Part shown: piece after piece, positions 1 through 4,747 of the stretch
How the letters are laid out: each line of letters begins with the position of its first letter
Position numbering within the stretch: the stretch's first letter is position 1
Assembly: GCA_947451385.1 (NCBI GenBank)
Contig: CANFYZ010000014.1
Coordinates: 1 to 52,533, forward strand
Length of the DNA stretch: 52,533 bases
DNA from: Comamonadaceae bacterium
GTDB lineage: Bacteria; Pseudomonadota; Gammaproteobacteria; Burkholderiales; Burkholderiaceae_C
Direction of reading: 5' to 3'
Made by a program: the position numbers and the translations under genes
The notes under the pieces: model-generated
The model's input: the letters and a program-made list of their open reading frames with translations, nothing else
Told to the model about the DNA's origin: nothing
The model's database searches: none

Positions 1-558
1 GATCTAGGCGAGACAACAAAAGCCTGGAGTGGGAACACCGCAATTTCAGCAGGTACAACACCTGATGGCAGCCTGGACTATTGGGTCCCCAAAGGTGCGA
101 GTCGTTTCCATTTTGCAGGTGGGGCTCGCTTCGTGCACGGCAGTGCAATGCCCCAAGAGGTTGTGGTACCTCTGGTGACCGTTCGCGAAAGTGAGGCCGA
201 AGGTTCGAAAACTCGTTCAGTCAGTATCAGCCTGCTGGGTTCTACAAATAAAGTGGTGACCAACACCCAACGGTTTGAGTTCATTCAGACGGATGCCGTT
301 TCGGAACGCGTTCTTGCCCGAACCGTAGTTGTATCCCTGCGGGATGGTGAAAAGCTGATCAGCGATCAACAAACCCTCACTTTTGACAGCACTTCACAAC
401 TTCTGGATGAACGAAAGAGATCTGTCTTTTTAACAATTCTGAGCGGTAACTACGAATCACACAAACGCTATGACTTGGTCATACGAGATGCGGTGACGAA
501 AGTTGAAGTGCTTCGACAGCCAGTTCAAATTGACTTGGCGTTTGGCAACGATTTTTAA
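1..558 (+). CDS. pglZ: PglZ, C-terminal part (BREX phosphatase-fold protein), 5'-truncated by window edge
   Basis: The reading frame is open from base 1 to the TAA at 556-558, giving the last 185 residues. The gene starts outside the window. The segment WVPKGASRFHFAGG followed by RFVHGSAMPQEVVVPLVTVR resembles the C-terminal end of PglZ proteins, in which an HGG/HGS-type motif precedes a PQEVVVP-like strand. The final ~100 residues form a beta-rich tail. PglZ is an alkaline-phosphatase-superfamily core component of BREX phage defence. The catalytic metal-binding part would lie upstream and cannot be checked. The call rests on these C-terminal motifs and on brxL following 22 bases downstream, an arrangement found in type 1 and type 4 BREX loci. 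Confidence 0.8.
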   Translation, partial: DLGETTKAWSGNTAISAGTTPDGSLDYWVPKGASRFHFAGGARFVHGSAMPQEVVVPLVTVRESEAEGSKTRSVSISLLGSTNKVVTNTQRFEFIQTDAVSERVLARTVVVSLRDGEKLISDQQTLTFDSTSQLLDERKRSVFLTILSGNYESHKRYDLVIRDAVTKVEVLRQPVQIDLAFGNDF

Positions 559-580
559 GAATAAGTACAAGGAGTAGGCG

Positions 581-2689
581 ATGAGCGAATTTGACGACAA
601 AATAAATCAGCACTTTGCTGGCCTGGTGGTGCGCAAAGACCTGGTGAAAGCTGTCAAAGGCAATGCAATCGTGCCGACCTATGTGCTCGAGTACTTGCTT
701 GGCCAGTATTGCGCCACCAACGACGAAGCGACCATCCAAACAGGCATCGATACGGTTAAAGAAATTCTGCGCAAGCATTACGTTCATCGCAATGAAGCAG
801 GTCTTGTTCGATCGACCATCAAGGAAAAGGGTCGGCACAAAGTCATTGATCGCATCAGCGTCTCACTGAATGACAAAGACGATGTCTATGAGGCAGAGTT
901 CTCTAACCTTGGTATCAAGAAGGTTTTGATTGACTCAGGCACAGTCAAGGCGCACCAGAAGTTGCTGGTCGGTGGTGTTTGGTGCATTGCGGACTTGGAG
1001 TACGAGCACACAGAAGAAAAAGCTGTGACGCCTTGGATTCTTGCCTCACTTAAACCGATTCAGATCTCTCGCTTTGAATTTGATGGCTATGTTGAGGCAC
1101 GCAAACAATTCAGCACGGAAGAGTGGATCGACCTGCTAATACAAAGCATTGGCTTCAACCCACAGATGTTTGGCAAGCGGAACAAGCTTTTGCAACTAAT
1201 TCGCTTGATCCCGTTTTGTGAGCGCAACTACAACCTGATTGAATTGGGTCCGAAGGGAACTGGTAAGTCGCATGTGTATTCCGAGTTCTCACCGCACGGA
1301 ATCCTGATTTCAGGTGGCGAGGTCACTGTACCCAAGCTTTTCGTCAGCAATTCCTCCGGTAAGCTGGGCCTGGTCGGCTATTGGGATGTGGTCGCTTTTG
1401 ATGAATTTGCGGGCAAGCAAAAGAAAGTCGACAAAGCACTTGTCGACATCATGAAAAACTACATGGCCAACAAGTCCTTCTCCCGGGGTGTCGAAACCCT
1501 AGGGGCCGAGGCCAGCATGGTGTTCGTGGGAAACACGGATCACACAGTGCCTTACATGCTCAAGCACTCTGACTTGTTCGACCCCCTGCCAGAGAAGTTT
1601 CATGACTCAGCATTCCTCGACCGGGTTCACAGCTACATTCCAGGCTGGGAAGTGGACGTGATTCGTGGTGAGATGTTCTCCACAGGCTACGGATTTGTTG
1701 TGGACTATTTGGCTGAGATTCTCAAATCTTTGCGCAGCCATGACTTTTCGGATCGGTACAAAAAGCATTTCAGCTTGTCTGAAGAGATCTCCACCCGCGA
1801 CCGAGACGGTATTAACAAAACTTTCTCAGGACTCATGAAGATTTTGTATCCCCAGGGTGCGGCAACTGAGTCTGAAATTGAAGATCTACTCAGGGCTGCG
1901 ATTGAGGGTCGAAAACGAGTTAAGGACCAACTGCTGCGCATCGACTCCACTTACCCTGAAGTGCGCTTTGCATATGAAGGTAAGGATGGTCAAGAGAAGC
2001 TGGTTCGTACTTTGGAGGAGGACGAGTATCCCAACCAATACCACCGTCGCCTGCCCATTGAAGTTCAATCACAAGCGGCTGAATCTTCTCCAATAACAGC
2101 AACACCCAGCCCAGCCTCGACGGAAGCCGCATCGACCCCCTTCGCAGCCACGATAAGTCCACCAGCTGCGGTTGAAGCGGTTTTAAAGGAGCAACACCTG
2201 GTCTTTCAAGAAAATCAGCGTGGCGTGAGTTTTGACGCCCTGTTTGGCTCCTATTTGGCTGGTGCCAAACGGATCATCATCACGGATCCATACATGCGCT
2301 TGTTTCACCAGTTGCGCAACTTGATGGATCTCATGGAAACGATCAGCAAGTTCAAAGGCCCTGACGAAGAAGTGGCCGTTCATGCAGTAACCGTAGAAGA
2401 CGAATTCAACGGGGACCGTCAATCAGAAAATCTACAAAAAATTGCTGATGCCTGCCAGAGCGTGGGGATTCAGTTCACCTGGGCTTATGACACATCAGGC
2501 ACAAAACATGACCGTGACATCACGACTGACCATGGCTGGAAGATCGCTTTGAGTCGAGGACTCGACGTATTCCAACGCTTTGAACTGAACGACGCCTTTA
2601 ACTTTGCCAACCGGATGCAGCAGCATAGGCAATCCAAAGAGTTCAACGTTACTTATGTGCGAATGAAACCCGAAGGCGTAAAGCGCTAA
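581..2689 (+). CDS. brxL: BrxL-family AAA+ protein with C-terminal MIT_C-like domain
   Basis: 702 residues, ATG preceded by AAGGAG. Residues ~1-160 match the BrxL N-terminal domain. The AAA+ core has Walker A GPKGTGKSH (223-231), Walker B VVAFDEF (270-276), sensor-like FVGNTD (315-320) and an arginine-finger-like FLDRVH (345-350). Homology to classical BrxL continues to about residue 490 (FSTGYGFVVDYLAEIL, GLMKILYPQG, EGRKRVKDQL). The Lon-like peptidase domain that normally follows is not visible. Instead there is a Pro/Ala/Ser linker (~495-535) and a domain at ~545-695 with DPYMR, HDRD and HGWKIALSRGLDVF, the pattern of the MIT_C (MITD1 C-terminal, phospholipase-D-like fold) family. BrxL is the AAA+ component of BREX; classical BrxL forms DNA-binding rings. 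The MIT_C call is from memory of the family and was not searched. Confidence 0.88.
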   Translation: MSEFDDKINQHFAGLVVRKDLVKAVKGNAIVPTYVLEYLLGQYCATNDEATIQTGIDTVKEILRKHYVHRNEAGLVRSTIKEKGRHKVIDRISVSLNDKDDVYEAEFSNLGIKKVLIDSGTVKAHQKLLVGGVWCIADLEYEHTEEKAVTPWILASLKPIQISRFEFDGYVEARKQFSTEEWIDLLIQSIGFNPQMFGKRNKLLQLIRLIPFCERNYNLIELGPKGTGKSHVYSEFSPHGILISGGEVTVPKLFVSNSSGKLGLVGYWDVVAFDEFAGKQKKVDKALVDIMKNYMANKSFSRGVETLGAEASMVFVGNTDHTVPYMLKHSDLFDPLPEKFHDSAFLDRVHSYIPGWEVDVIRGEMFSTGYGFVVDYLAEILKSLRSHDFSDRYKKHFSLSEEISTRDRDGINKTFSGLMKILYPQGAATESEIEDLLRAAIEGRKRVKDQLLRIDSTYPEVRFAYEGKDGQEKLVRTLEEDEYPNQYHRRLPIEVQSQAAESSPITATPSPASTEAASTPFAATISPPAAVEAVLKEQHLVFQENQRGVSFDALFGSYLAGAKRIIITDPYMRLFHQLRNLMDLMETISKFKGPDEEVAVHAVTVEDEFNGDRQSENLQKIADACQSVGIQFTWAYDTSGTKHDRDITTDHGWKIALSRGLDVFQRFELNDAFNFANRMQQHRQSKEFNVTYVRMKPEGVKR

Positions 2690-2716
2690 GCACCAAAAAA
2701 ACAAAGAAAGCGCGAT

Positions 2717-4408
2717 ATGGCAAAAGCAGAAGCATCAGTTGAAGAACTTGTCGGAATGATTGAACGAGGCGAGCTGCGTTTGCCTGAGATGCAGCGACAG
2801 TACGTTTGGCGCTCCACCAGAGTTCGTGATTTGCTCGATTCCCTTTATCGCGGCTACCCCTCCGGGGCGATCTTGCTTTGGGAAACCGATGAAGACGTGC
2901 CATTGCAGGCGATGGCAGTTGGCCAACAAAGTAACCCCTACAAGACCACACGGCTGCTTTTGGATGGGCAGCAGCGGCTCACATCACTTTCGGCTGTGAT
3001 TCGGGGTGAGCCTGTGAATGTTCGCGGCAGAAAGCGTCCGATTGAAATTCTTTTCAACCTTGAGCACCCCAACGAGCTTCAGGGCTTCATGGAGATCAAT
3101 GAGGAAAGTGACGTTGATGACACCGAGCCCGACCAGGTGGACGCATCGGAGGATGAACTCCAGCAGCGTTTTGACCGAATGACCTTCGTTGTATCGACCC
3201 GCAAGTTGGAAAGCAGTCCGCGCTGGGTCAAAGTCTCAGAGGTTTTCAAGAGCACAAGCAACACCGAATTCCTCAAACGGGCTGGCGTGACCTCCTTTGA
3301 TGACCCTCGTGCAGACCTTTATGGCCAGCGTCTTGATCGCCTCAGGGCCGTCAAGAAGTACGTGTACCGCATGGATGTACTGGAGCGCACGCTTTCCTAT
3401 GACGAGGTGACTGAGATCTTTGTGCGGGTCAACTCACTTGGCGCAAAGCTTCGAAGCTCGGATCTTGCACTGGCCCAAATCACTGCGAAGTGGAAAAACT
3501 CACTTCATACCTTCCAGGCATTCCAAGGCAAGTGCAAAGAAGTCGGATTTGACCTTGAACTGGGTATCCACTTGAAGAATATGGTGGCAATGGCCACTGG
3601 ACAATCTCGGTTCAAAACGGTGAGCTCGCTTGATATCACCCGGCTTCAAACGGCGTGGACTGATGCTTGCGAAGGCATGAATTTCGCCATGAATTTTCTC
3701 AAAAGCAACGTCGGGATTGATAGTCCAGCATTGCTTTCCTCTCCGTCCATGGTGGTGGCCATTTCGTATTTCGGTCACAAGCGCAACTACCAAATTTCGC
3801 CAGATGAGTCCAAGTTGCTGCGTTATTGGGTGCTGGCAGCCAACGCCAAGGGCCGGTTCTCGCGCGGCTCAAGTGAAACACTGCTTGACCAGGACATCGC
3901 CTCAATTCGGGATGGAGGAGATATCCAGGACTTGATTGACCGGCTACGTTCGCAGGTAGGTAGGCTGGAAATTTCGCCTGAAGAGCTGTCTGGAAGGAAC
4001 CAACGTAGTGCGTTGTTCAAGACGATGTTCTTGGCCTTCCGCTCGGCTGGCGCAAAAGACTGGCATTCCAATCTGACGATTGCCCTTGATCACAGCGGTA
4101 TGCAACATCGCCTTCAGTTCCACCATATTTTTCCAAAGGCTGTGCTCACCAAGGCGGGCGTGATTTCACGCGAGGCCGACGACATATCCAATTTGGCCTT
4201 CATTGGTGGCAAGACCAACCGTGTCATCAGCGACAAGCCACCAAAAGAGTACCTTGCCTTTTTTGCCGCAAAGAGCGGTGAAGAGGGTTTCAGCGTCCAA
4301 GAGATTCCGCTCGATCCTGAACTGCTTGACACCCCGGCATACAAGAAGTTCCTTGAGGTACGTCGCGAACGAATCGCAAACAGACTCAACCTGTTCATTT
4401 CCGGCTGA
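2717..4408 (+). CDS. DUF262 (GmrS/ParB-like) protein with C-terminal HNH-type nuclease motif
   Basis: 563 residues, 27 bases after brxL on the same strand, so probably co-transcribed. The N-terminal DUF262 fold is marked by GELRLPEMQRQYVW (18-31) and LLLDGQQRLTSL (80-91), the nucleotide-binding signature shared with GmrS, BrxU and Dnd/Ssp-type effectors. The C-terminus has FHHIFPKAVL (~467-476) and ISNLAFIGGKTNRVISDKPP (~489-508), a His-Asn pattern of DUF1524/HNH nucleases. The same two modules make up type IV modification-dependent restriction enzymes (GmrSD) and the BREX-associated BrxU, so a nucleotide-dependent DNA endonuclease is the likely role. At 563 residues it is compact for a full GmrSD-type enzyme. 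Whether it targets modified DNA cannot be read from sequence. Confidence 0.8.
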   Translation: MAKAEASVEELVGMIERGELRLPEMQRQYVWRSTRVRDLLDSLYRGYPSGAILLWETDEDVPLQAMAVGQQSNPYKTTRLLLDGQQRLTSLSAVIRGEPVNVRGRKRPIEILFNLEHPNELQGFMEINEESDVDDTEPDQVDASEDELQQRFDRMTFVVSTRKLESSPRWVKVSEVFKSTSNTEFLKRAGVTSFDDPRADLYGQRLDRLRAVKKYVYRMDVLERTLSYDEVTEIFVRVNSLGAKLRSSDLALAQITAKWKNSLHTFQAFQGKCKEVGFDLELGIHLKNMVAMATGQSRFKTVSSLDITRLQTAWTDACEGMNFAMNFLKSNVGIDSPALLSSPSMVVAISYFGHKRNYQISPDESKLLRYWVLAANAKGRFSRGSSETLLDQDIASIRDGGDIQDLIDRLRSQVGRLEISPEELSGRNQRSALFKTMFLAFRSAGAKDWHSNLTIALDHSGMQHRLQFHHIFPKAVLTKAGVISREADDISNLAFIGGKTNRVISDKPPKEYLAFFAAKSGEEGFSVQEIPLDPELLDTPAYKKFLEVRRERIANRLNLFISG

Positions 4409-4442
4409 TACCCAAAACGCTTAGAGCAACGAAGTTTCATTC

Positions 4443-4500
4443 AACTTGGTTCAAAGCCCGTTTTGCCGAAACCGGCAAATTCACGGCTCGGAACCAAGTT
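4443..4500. repeat. Long imperfect palindrome between the BREX genes and tRNA-Ser
   Basis: A perfect 10-base outer inverted repeat, AACTTGGTTC (4443-4452) and GAACCAAGTT (4491-4500), encloses AGCC/GGCT (4455-4458/4485-4488) and an inner hairpin TTTGCCG/CGGCAAA (4462-4468/4473-4479) with a 4-base loop. A second inverted repeat follows, AAAAGTC (4504-4510) and GACTTTT (4542-4548). The element lies 35 bases after the stop of the DUF262 gene. It may act as a transcription end for the defence operon or mark the island boundary. There is no downstream T-run of the canonical terminator kind. The rest of 4409-4587 holds no convincing gene. Confidence 0.6.
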
Positions 4501-4587
4501 CGAAAAAGTCATGAGGTTTTGAGACAAACGGGGTTTGAGACGACTTTTCCGGGCCAACGCCACAGGCCGCAGTCAGGAGCCCAAAGC

Positions 4588-4611
4588 AAAAAGCCCCGCG
4601 TGGTGCGGGGC
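4588..4611 (-). terminator. Rho-independent terminator after tRNA-Ser
   Basis: Read on the minus strand, the stem GCCCCGC/GCGGGGC (7 pairs, 5-base loop ACCAC; 4593-4611) is followed directly by TTTTT (4592-4588). It lies 46 bases past the 3' end of the tRNA gene and fits as its terminator. A further inverted repeat, CCTGCT/AGCAGG with flanking CCTCAA/TTGAGG, sits between it and the tRNA (4621-4647). Confidence 0.85.
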
Positions 4612-4657
4612 CTGGTGCTGCCTCAAGGCCTGCTGAGCAGGTTTGAGGTCTTAGTAC

Positions 4658-4747
4658 TGGCGGAGGAGGAGGGATTCGAACCCTCGGTAGTGTTGCCACT
4701 ACGCCTGATTTCGAGTCAGGTACATTCGACCACTCTGCCACCCCTCC
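4658..4747 (-). tRNA. tRNA-Ser (anticodon CGA)
   Basis: 90 bases including an encoded CCA end. The minus strand starts GGAGGGG and ends CTCCTCC-G-CCA, a 7-pair acceptor stem with one G-T pair. The anticodon stem CCTGA/TCAGG holds the loop CTCGAAA, giving anticodon CGA for UCG codons. A long variable arm (GTAGTG/CACTAC) marks it as class II, as expected for serine. The T-arm loop is GGTTCGAATCC. It lies 34 bases beyond the end of serS, transcribed in the same direction, and is followed by a strong terminator. Confidence 0.97.

What the first reader, a model, noticed from the sequence alone, without database searches (positions are those of the whole stretch)
581..2689. BrxL with the Lon-like protease domain replaced by a MIT_C-like domain
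The AAA+ half follows BrxL closely through about residue 490. The C-terminal Lon-like domain expected next is then not visible; a low-complexity linker leads into a segment with DPYMR, HDRD and HGWKIALSRGLDVF, the pattern of the MIT_C (MITD1 C-terminal, phospholipase-D-like) domain known from eukaryotic ESCRT proteins. This suggests a BREX subtype in which BrxL lost its protease part and gained a phosphate- or membrane-binding module, possibly a different way of sensing or sequestering phage DNA at the membrane.
Basis: partly seen in the sequence, partly recalled or inferred. Interest (0 to 1): 0.75.

Follow-up and report, generated by a model that had tools for sequence, protein, structure and literature searches.

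The report
BREX motor protein with MITD1-like tail
The gene encodes a phage-defence DNA motor (BrxL) whose usual inert Lon-like tail is replaced by a phospholipase-D-fold domain related to one in human MITD1; the swap is real but common and already published, and whether the tail cuts DNA or only grips phosphate or membrane is untested.

Summary
ORF 581-2689 (702 aa) has the BrxL N-terminal and AAA+ domains, no Lon-like C-terminal domain, a flexible linker, and a full-length MIT_C domain (residues 548-694, E 8e-39). By sequence (E 1e-15) and predicted fold (pLDDT 94; MITD1 ranks first, E 2e-17, TM about 0.82) it is a relative of the C-terminal domain of human MITD1.

It is not new. Rakesh & Krishnan (NAR 2026) count 1030 of 2913 type-1 BREX BrxL with an "HKD-endoDNase" in place of the Lon domain; PADLOC has a model for this form. 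In 299 sampled genomes of the host's phylum, 5 of 11 BrxL have it.

What I add: in 110 aligned MIT_C rows, human MITD1 included, H643, R645 and RGLD are nearly invariant, Lys never replaces R645, and the +7 Asp varies. So "HKD nuclease" is unproven. Human MITD1 groups with one BrxL-tail subgroup (up to 48.6% identity); MIT_C also occurs on a dynamin-type and other proteins.

The parts
1..558 (+). 3' part of pglZ (BREX-1 PglZ type A); the gene runs off the contig start
   Evidence: TIGR02687 positions 663-844 at window 4-531, 197 bits, below the family's cut-off of 270 as the gene is cut; 708-844 in the ORF 133-558, E 4.9e-40
581..2689 (+). brxL, 702 aa, MIT_C-tailed form
   Evidence: PADLOC BrxL model PDLC02508 matched at residues 1-695 of 702, 1204 bits
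608..1003 (+). BrxL_N domain (residues 10-141)
   Evidence: PF20442 E 9.5e-50
1037..1969 (+). BrxL AAA+ ATPase domain (residues 153-463); Walker A GPKGTGKS 223-230, Walker B AFDE 272-275
   Evidence: PF13337 E 5.4e-130; most of these residues invariant in 27 full-length rows; motif names recalled
2045..2176 (+). flexible linker (residues 489-532)
   Evidence: pLDDT under 50; core-to-tail stretch 49-91 aa in 120 distinct BrxL ORFs, the window included; fastest-changing part
2222..2662 (+). MIT_C (PLD-like) domain, residues 548-694
   Evidence: PF16565 E 8.4e-39; MITD1 by phmmer E 1.3e-15; AF2 pLDDT 94.2 and Foldseek MITD1 E 2.4e-17
2285..2299 (+). DPYMR motif (residues 569-573)
   Evidence: Y571 105 of 105, R573 104 of 105 BrxL-type rows
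2507..2530 (+). HDRDITTD = HxRx4D, pseudo-HKD motif (H643, R645, D650)
   Evidence: H 103 of 104, R 104 of 104, D 95 of 104 BrxL-type rows with a residue there
2555..2566 (+). RGLD motif (residues 659-662), near the place where PLDs carry GSxN (that motif recalled)
   Evidence: R 103 of 104, G, L and D 104 of 104
2717..4408 (+). GmrSD_N/DUF262 protein, 563 aa, possible BREX accessory (type IV restriction-like)
   Evidence: PF03235 E 1e-28; PADLOC HEC-05 2.2e-49. Against the link: its nearest plasmid homologue (69%) has no gene annotated as BREX within 6 kb

Best explanation
This is the BrxL motor of a type-1 BREX system in the MIT_C-tailed form. The N-terminal and AAA+ parts most likely form the ring that assembles on DNA, as shown for Acinetobacter BrxL (established for the relative, inferred here). 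The Lon-like domain that joins two rings in that relative is absent; instead each subunit carries, on a flexible tether of roughly 50-90 residues, one PLD-fold domain with a nearly invariant H-R-RGLD pocket (shown by sequence and predicted fold). I think it most likely that two such domains pair to form one phosphodiester-handling site, with H643 as the attacking residue, and nick or process the DNA that the ring has engaged (inferred, about 45%). The main competing mechanism is that the same pocket only binds phosphate and tethers BrxL to membrane or DNA, in line with the membrane binding reported for MITD1 (about 35%).
For: Domain calls: 4, 5, 6. Predicted fold and matches: MITD1, then Zucchini/PLD6 (E 3e-5), phosphatidylserine synthases, PLDs and the HKD restriction enzyme SauUSI (E 1.8e-3). 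Putative nucleophile H643 kept in 103 of 104 BrxL-type tails with a residue there, and H also in 4 of 4 non-BrxL bacterial rows and in human MITD1; R645 in 104 of 104: hard to explain for a bare scaffold. Purifying selection on the tail. Neighbours: a pglZ homologue within 1.7 kb upstream in 65 of the 67 (of 80) named loci with more than 1.5 kb upstream, a brxC-pglX-pglZ-brxL operon with DUF1819 (brxA-like) and DUF1788 (brxB-like) genes in Methylomonas koyamae LM6, and the pglZ 3' end here. Other carriers include defence-type proteins (NsnC-like). The authors of PMC12839542 independently read the domain as an endoDNase.
Against: The catalytic Lys of HKD enzymes is Arg in 104 of 104 BrxL-type tails and the Asp varies (5 N, 3 S, 1 G of 104). 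Human MITD1, with the same H, R and RGLD, is described as a membrane binder (passage of PMC6015221). One bacterial MIT_C is fused to a dynamin-type GTPase, which suggests a membrane role. The domain's net charge is -4, unlike a typical DNA binder. I saw no biochemistry of the tail in print, but of the papers behind I saw mostly listings (40 of 73), so this is weak.
Confidence: 0.45

Rival explanations
1. The tail is a non-catalytic phosphate or membrane tether, as in MITD1: it holds BrxL (and the DNA in its ring) at the membrane or at another phosphorylated ligand.
For: Closest solved relative is MITD1, whose PLD-like fold binds membranes, needed for abscission (passage of PMC6015221); Arg in the HxK place and a variable Asp; dynamin-MIT_C fusion.
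Against: His nearly invariant; other carriers include helicase-like and defence-locus proteins. Lipid or membrane signals in BrxL were not sought.
Confidence: 0.35
2. The tail is mainly structural: it replaces the Lon-like domain as the element that pairs BrxL rings, with no chemistry.
For: The Lon-like domain joins rings tail to tail (PMC10164562); Lon and MIT_C tails exclude each other (0 of 173 core ORFs with both).
Against: An H-R pocket with G660 and D662 is kept even on unrelated host proteins; the long disordered linker suits a tethered effector better than a rigid joint.
Confidence: 0.18
3. Artefact: chance MIT_C resemblance or a decayed Lon domain.
For: None found.
Against: E 8e-39 over the full profile; fold match; 222 related stretches in named genomes, best 80 kept; purifying selection.
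Confidence: 0.01

Closest known systems
BrxL with C-terminal HKD-endoDNase (Rakesh & Krishnan, NAR 2026, PMC12839542; section 19 read, other passages seen)
   Same: Type-1 BREX BrxL, Lon domain replaced by a PLD-superfamily domain, HRD instead of HKD motif; 1030 of 2913 BrxL
   Different: They call it a likely endonuclease; the main text does not hold the words MITD1, ESCRT or MIT (whole-word search). Here the kinship with MITD1 is shown and catalysis is left open.
BrxL of Acinetobacter (8EMC/8EMH; PMC10164562, passages seen)
   Same: N-terminal and AAA+ domains, E 4e-144 over residues 3-473
   Different: Its C-terminal domain is Lon-like, without protease site; absent here
Human MITD1 (2YMB, 4A5Z)
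   Same: PLD-like domain; DPYxR, HxR, GW, RGLD shared; best bacterial tail 48.6% identical over 144 aa, ours 35.7% over 126 aa
   Different: MITD1 carries an MIT domain (ESCRT-III binding); none in BrxL; +7 residue N in MITD1, D here
HKD nucleases (SauUSI 7CLG, Zucchini 4GGK)
   Same: Fold (Foldseek E 1.8e-3 and 3e-5)
   Different: The Lys of their HxK (recalled) is Arg here in 104 of 104 BrxL-type tails that reach the motif

Membership tests
BrxL (BREX) | BrxL_N and BrxL AAA+ domains | tested here: met
   (TIGR02688 649 bits, cut-off 329)
BrxL (BREX) | Lon-like C-terminal domain (full TIGR02653) | tested here: not met
   607.5 bits against 628.25; alignment stops at 474 of 675. Not a feature of all BrxL: type-4 BrxL has no tail (section 19 of PMC12839542)
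BREX type 1 | pglZ type A next to brxL | tested here: met
   only its 3' end, directly upstream
BREX type 1 | brxA, brxB, brxC, pglX in the same operon | tested here: inconclusive
   contig starts inside pglZ; no BrxC or PglX found in the 90% complete assembly; brxA and brxB not searched there; such an operon in a relative
MIT_C (PF16565) | profile over cut-off, full length | tested here: met
   133 bits against 25, positions 1-142
MIT_C (PF16565) | MITD1-like PLD fold | tested here: met
   AF2 pLDDT 94.2; MITD1 ranks 1-5
MITD1 | N-terminal MIT domain | tested here: not met
   no MIT match in Pfam
HKD (PLD) nuclease | HxKx4D motif | tested here: not met
   HxRx4D; R in 104 of 104, D in 95 of 104
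HKD (PLD) nuclease | DNA cleavage through a phosphohistidine | not testable with these tools
   needs protein

The most novel reading that the evidence does not exclude
The PLD-like domain of eukaryotic MITD1, an ESCRT-III cofactor in cell division, came from a bacterial BREX BrxL tail: human MITD1 groups among bacterial MIT_C domains with one BrxL subgroup (support 100/98 in two trees) and is up to 48.6% identical to it. The tail would be a mobile phosphate-handling module shared by phage defence, a bacterial dynamin-type protein and eukaryotic abscission. Direction is not shown; only one eukaryotic sequence was used and the trees have no outgroup.
Probability: 0.22. Interest if true: 0.7.

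Novelty: new member of a known kind. Interest (0 to 1): 0.36.

Why it matters
About a third of published type-1 BrxL proteins carry this tail, so what it does bears on how BREX stops phage. The published label (endonuclease) rests on a motif whose key lysine is missing in every sequence I aligned, and whose remaining residues are shared with a eukaryotic membrane-binding protein. A few point mutants would decide between the readings. If the MITD1 link holds with more eukaryotes sampled, it adds a case of a cell-division part related to a bacterial defence module.

Tried and rejected
Lon_C remnant after the core: none. 'BREX subtype' tested by a BrxL core tree: MIT_C tails fall in three places in a quick 61-row tree, but an AU test on 45 rows (L136 and the tail-less rows left out, fewer MIT_C rows) does not reject a single origin (p 0.70; the held tree was even better), so repeated swaps are possible but not shown. 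Weak MIT_C hits below the cut-off: of the four in the window's phylum, two (L008, L010) read as ABC ATPases; the other two (L007, L009) were not identified, because the script read the wrong strand; my notebook entry that says all four are ABC ATPases is too strong. Integration repeat: no exact copy of 10 bases or more of the 63 bases at the tRNA-Ser 3' end in 1-4650. Dynamin-MIT_C as a widespread family: 1 of 14 matched plasmid records holds most of it; none seen among the 22 matches listed from 369 genomes, where at most two candidates a genome were scored (MIT_C-side matches in BrxL-sized frames, or GTPase-side matches). Phage records: no match to linker plus tail in 50,697; 17 loci in IMG/VR contigs, 16 with a BrxL core in the same ORF. 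Full-length AF2 model: AAA+ part poor (mean pLDDT 66.8, 27 rows), used only for the linker. Papers on Menshen (Li 2025) and MITD1 (Hadders 2012) are not held; they are known to me here only through other papers. Paper searches added only PMC9477494 and, again, PMC12715929; one search gave nothing.

Full report
What is there. The window is the start of contig C14 of a 3.1-Mb, 107-contig, 90% complete assembly. It opens inside a pglZ type A gene, followed by brxL (581-2689), a GmrSD_N/DUF262 gene (2717-4408) and then tRNA-Ser(CGA) on the minus strand (4658-4747). No BrxC or PglX was found in the assembly, so the left part of the operon is not visible here; brxA and brxB were not searched for.

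The BrxL protein. Pfam finds BrxL_N (10-141), BrxL_ATPase (153-463) and MIT_C (548-694, E 8.4e-39, whole profile) and no Lon_C. Against the PDB, residues 3-473 match the Acinetobacter BrxL structures (E 4e-144) and residues 540-668 match human MITD1 (E 1e-15). The two parts are joined by a stretch with pLDDT under 50 at 489-532; core end to MIT_C start is 49-91 residues in 120 distinct BrxL ORFs, and this is the fastest-changing part of the gene. PADLOC separates the two forms already: the window protein and Thauera BrxL (L017) match model PDLC02508 nearly end to end, whereas the two Lon-tailed BrxL tested (L182, L189) match PDLC02506 nearly end to end.

Fold. AlphaFold2 on residues 536-702 with 46 rows gives pLDDT 94.2, pTM 0.88. 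Foldseek against the PDB ranks five MITD1 chains first (best E 2.4e-17, TM 0.82 by query, 0.87 by target), then mouse Zucchini (3e-5), phosphatidylserine synthases and PLDs, and SauUSI at 1.8e-3.

How common. Among 299 genomes of the window's phylum, 11 have BrxL_N and 5 of the same handles have MIT_C over the cut-off; those 5 are BrxL tails and the other 6 BrxL have Lon-like tails. MIT_C over the cut-off elsewhere: 6 of 369 genomes of the class of G299 (Allochromatium by record title), 19 of 296 of the phylum of G300 (Bacteroidetes by title) and 13 of 292 of the phylum of G301 (Cyanobacteria by title). In the last two, 17 of 20 and 11 of 13 matches over the cut-off lie in open frames of BrxL size (673-709 and 678-695 aa); of the other five, four are described below and one (L140, a frame of 99 aa with a stop inside) was not classed. 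Fourteen genomes and two plasmids that carry loci of mine each hold one MIT_C (a fifteenth genome was not held). In named genomes 222 stretches matched and the best 80 were kept; 76 of 80 have a Walker-A-like motif in the same frame. The other four: L038 is an internal deletion that brings the start of brxB close to the end of brxL; L039 and L093 have the core wholly or partly in other frames; L045 starts at a contig end. Of the 67 of these 80 loci with more than 1.5 kb upstream, 65 have a pglZ homologue within 1.7 kb upstream (misses: L021, L038); pglX in 58 of 63 with more than 4.5 kb upstream; BrxC was reached in only 2 of 54, probably because the fetched flank mostly ends before it. In plasmids 25 records match linker plus tail against 324 that match the whole protein. 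Of the 324 I classed few: of nine Lon-or-tail-less candidates opened's list, seven (L188-L194) have Lon-like tails and two (L195, L196) neither tail.

Active-site residues. In an alignment of 110 distinct MIT_C rows (105 BrxL-type, one of them, L021, ending before the motif; 4 other bacterial; 1 human), the BrxL-type rows show H643 103 of 104 (one Q), R645 104 of 104, D650 95 of 104 (5 N, 3 S, 1 G), G652 and W653 104 of 104, R659 103 of 104, G660, L661 and D662 104 of 104, Y571 and Q577 105 of 105, R573 104 of 105. No row has Lys in the HxK place. Human MITD1 has the same residues except N for D650. The other four bacterial rows keep H, R, G660 and D662, not all of the rest. The classical motif HxKx4D...GSxN is recalled, not from a call.

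Relation to MITD1. The three nearest bacterial tails (L102, L118, L125) are 46.5-48.6% identical to human MITD1 over 144 residues; ours is 35.7% over 126; phmmer of the tail of L168 (the gene of L118) gives 133 bits, E 8e-38, against 61 bits for ours. In two trees human MITD1 groups with L097, L102, L118 and L125 (100/98); L097 comes from a brxL annotated in pieces. The second tree leaves out the longest branches (L141, L156, L103). Both have one eukaryote only and a midpoint root, and the first had an unsettled bootstrap. So close kinship across domains is shown, direction is not.

Other carriers. A dynamin-type GTPase with C-terminal MIT_C on a Candidatus Thiodictyon plasmid (Dynamin_N E 2.8e-20, MIT_C E 2.7e-21); a MIT_C-Sel1 protein next to DpdE-like, DrmMI-like and Mrr genes; three proteins of 309-320 aa, two with a PADLOC NsnC match (L164, L165), L163 and L164 beside NsnB-like ATPases; a DruE-like helicase with a tail below the cut-off.

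Prior art. PMC12839542 (section 19 read in full; other passages) reports the substitution in 1030 of 2913 BrxL and proposes endonuclease activity despite K to R. It cites Li et al. 2025 (not held). It does not hold the words MITD1 or ESCRT in its main text. A search for papers with BrxL and MIT found one lanthipeptide survey, a passage of which lists PF16565 among BREX-linked families; MITD1 with 'horizontal gene transfer' found none. These searches cover only the openly licensed library.

Mechanism. Shown: domain make-up, absence of the Lon-like part, fold by prediction, conserved pocket, constraint, BREX neighbourhood in relatives. Known for relatives: BrxL forms DNA-binding rings joined through the Lon-like domain, and BrxL is needed for restriction (passages of PMC10164562). 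Inferred: tails pair to form a phosphodiester-handling site. I hold nuclease action at about 45%, a non-catalytic phosphate or membrane tether at 35%, a structural role at 18%. (In checking I set the confidence of the best explanation to 0.45, to agree with this text.)

Verdict. A correct and well-read observation of a published variant; interest lies in the open question that the conserved H-R pocket makes testable and in the MITD1 kinship.

Noticed in passing
L098:6640-9480 (NZ_CP020372.1): Dynamin_N GTPase fused to a C-terminal MIT_C domain, HDRYVVCD motif, on a Candidatus Thiodictyon plasmid; 1 of 14 matched plasmid records holds most of it.
   Followed up: partly
L162:8098-11307 (G837): MIT_C followed by many Sel1 repeats, beside DpdE-like helicase, DrmMI-like methylase and a Mrr-type nuclease.
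   Followed up: partly
L163:5765-6703, L164:6778-7704, L165:3154-4113: Short proteins with weak MIT_C match and HDR motif; L164 and L165 match PADLOC NsnC; L163 and L164 lie beside NsnB-like ATPases, that of L164 with a CARF-like N-terminus.
   Followed up: partly
L168:6227-8419, L125, L216, L217: BrxL subgroup whose tail is nearest to human MITD1 (up to 48.6% identity; HDREIRLDNGW in L168 for HDREIRFNNGW), also seen in IMG/VR contigs.
   Followed up: partly
window 2717-4408: GmrSD_N (DUF262) gene right after brxL. In 10 of 69 named loci a homologue was found, by position before brxL; a DUF262 gene follows brxL in a Lactiplantibacillus plasmid; but the nearest plasmid homologue (69%) has no annotated BREX gene within 6 kb.
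   Followed up: partly
window 4658-4747: tRNA-Ser(CGA) with its 3' end facing the BREX genes, as at many island borders (recalled); no repeat of 10 bases or more found on the visible side.
   Followed up: partly
L038:8134-9477 (Stutzerimonas stutzeri KOS6): BREX remnant: a brxA match over its whole length, then a short start of brxB close to the end of brxL with its MIT_C tail; the middle of the operon is missing.
   Followed up: no
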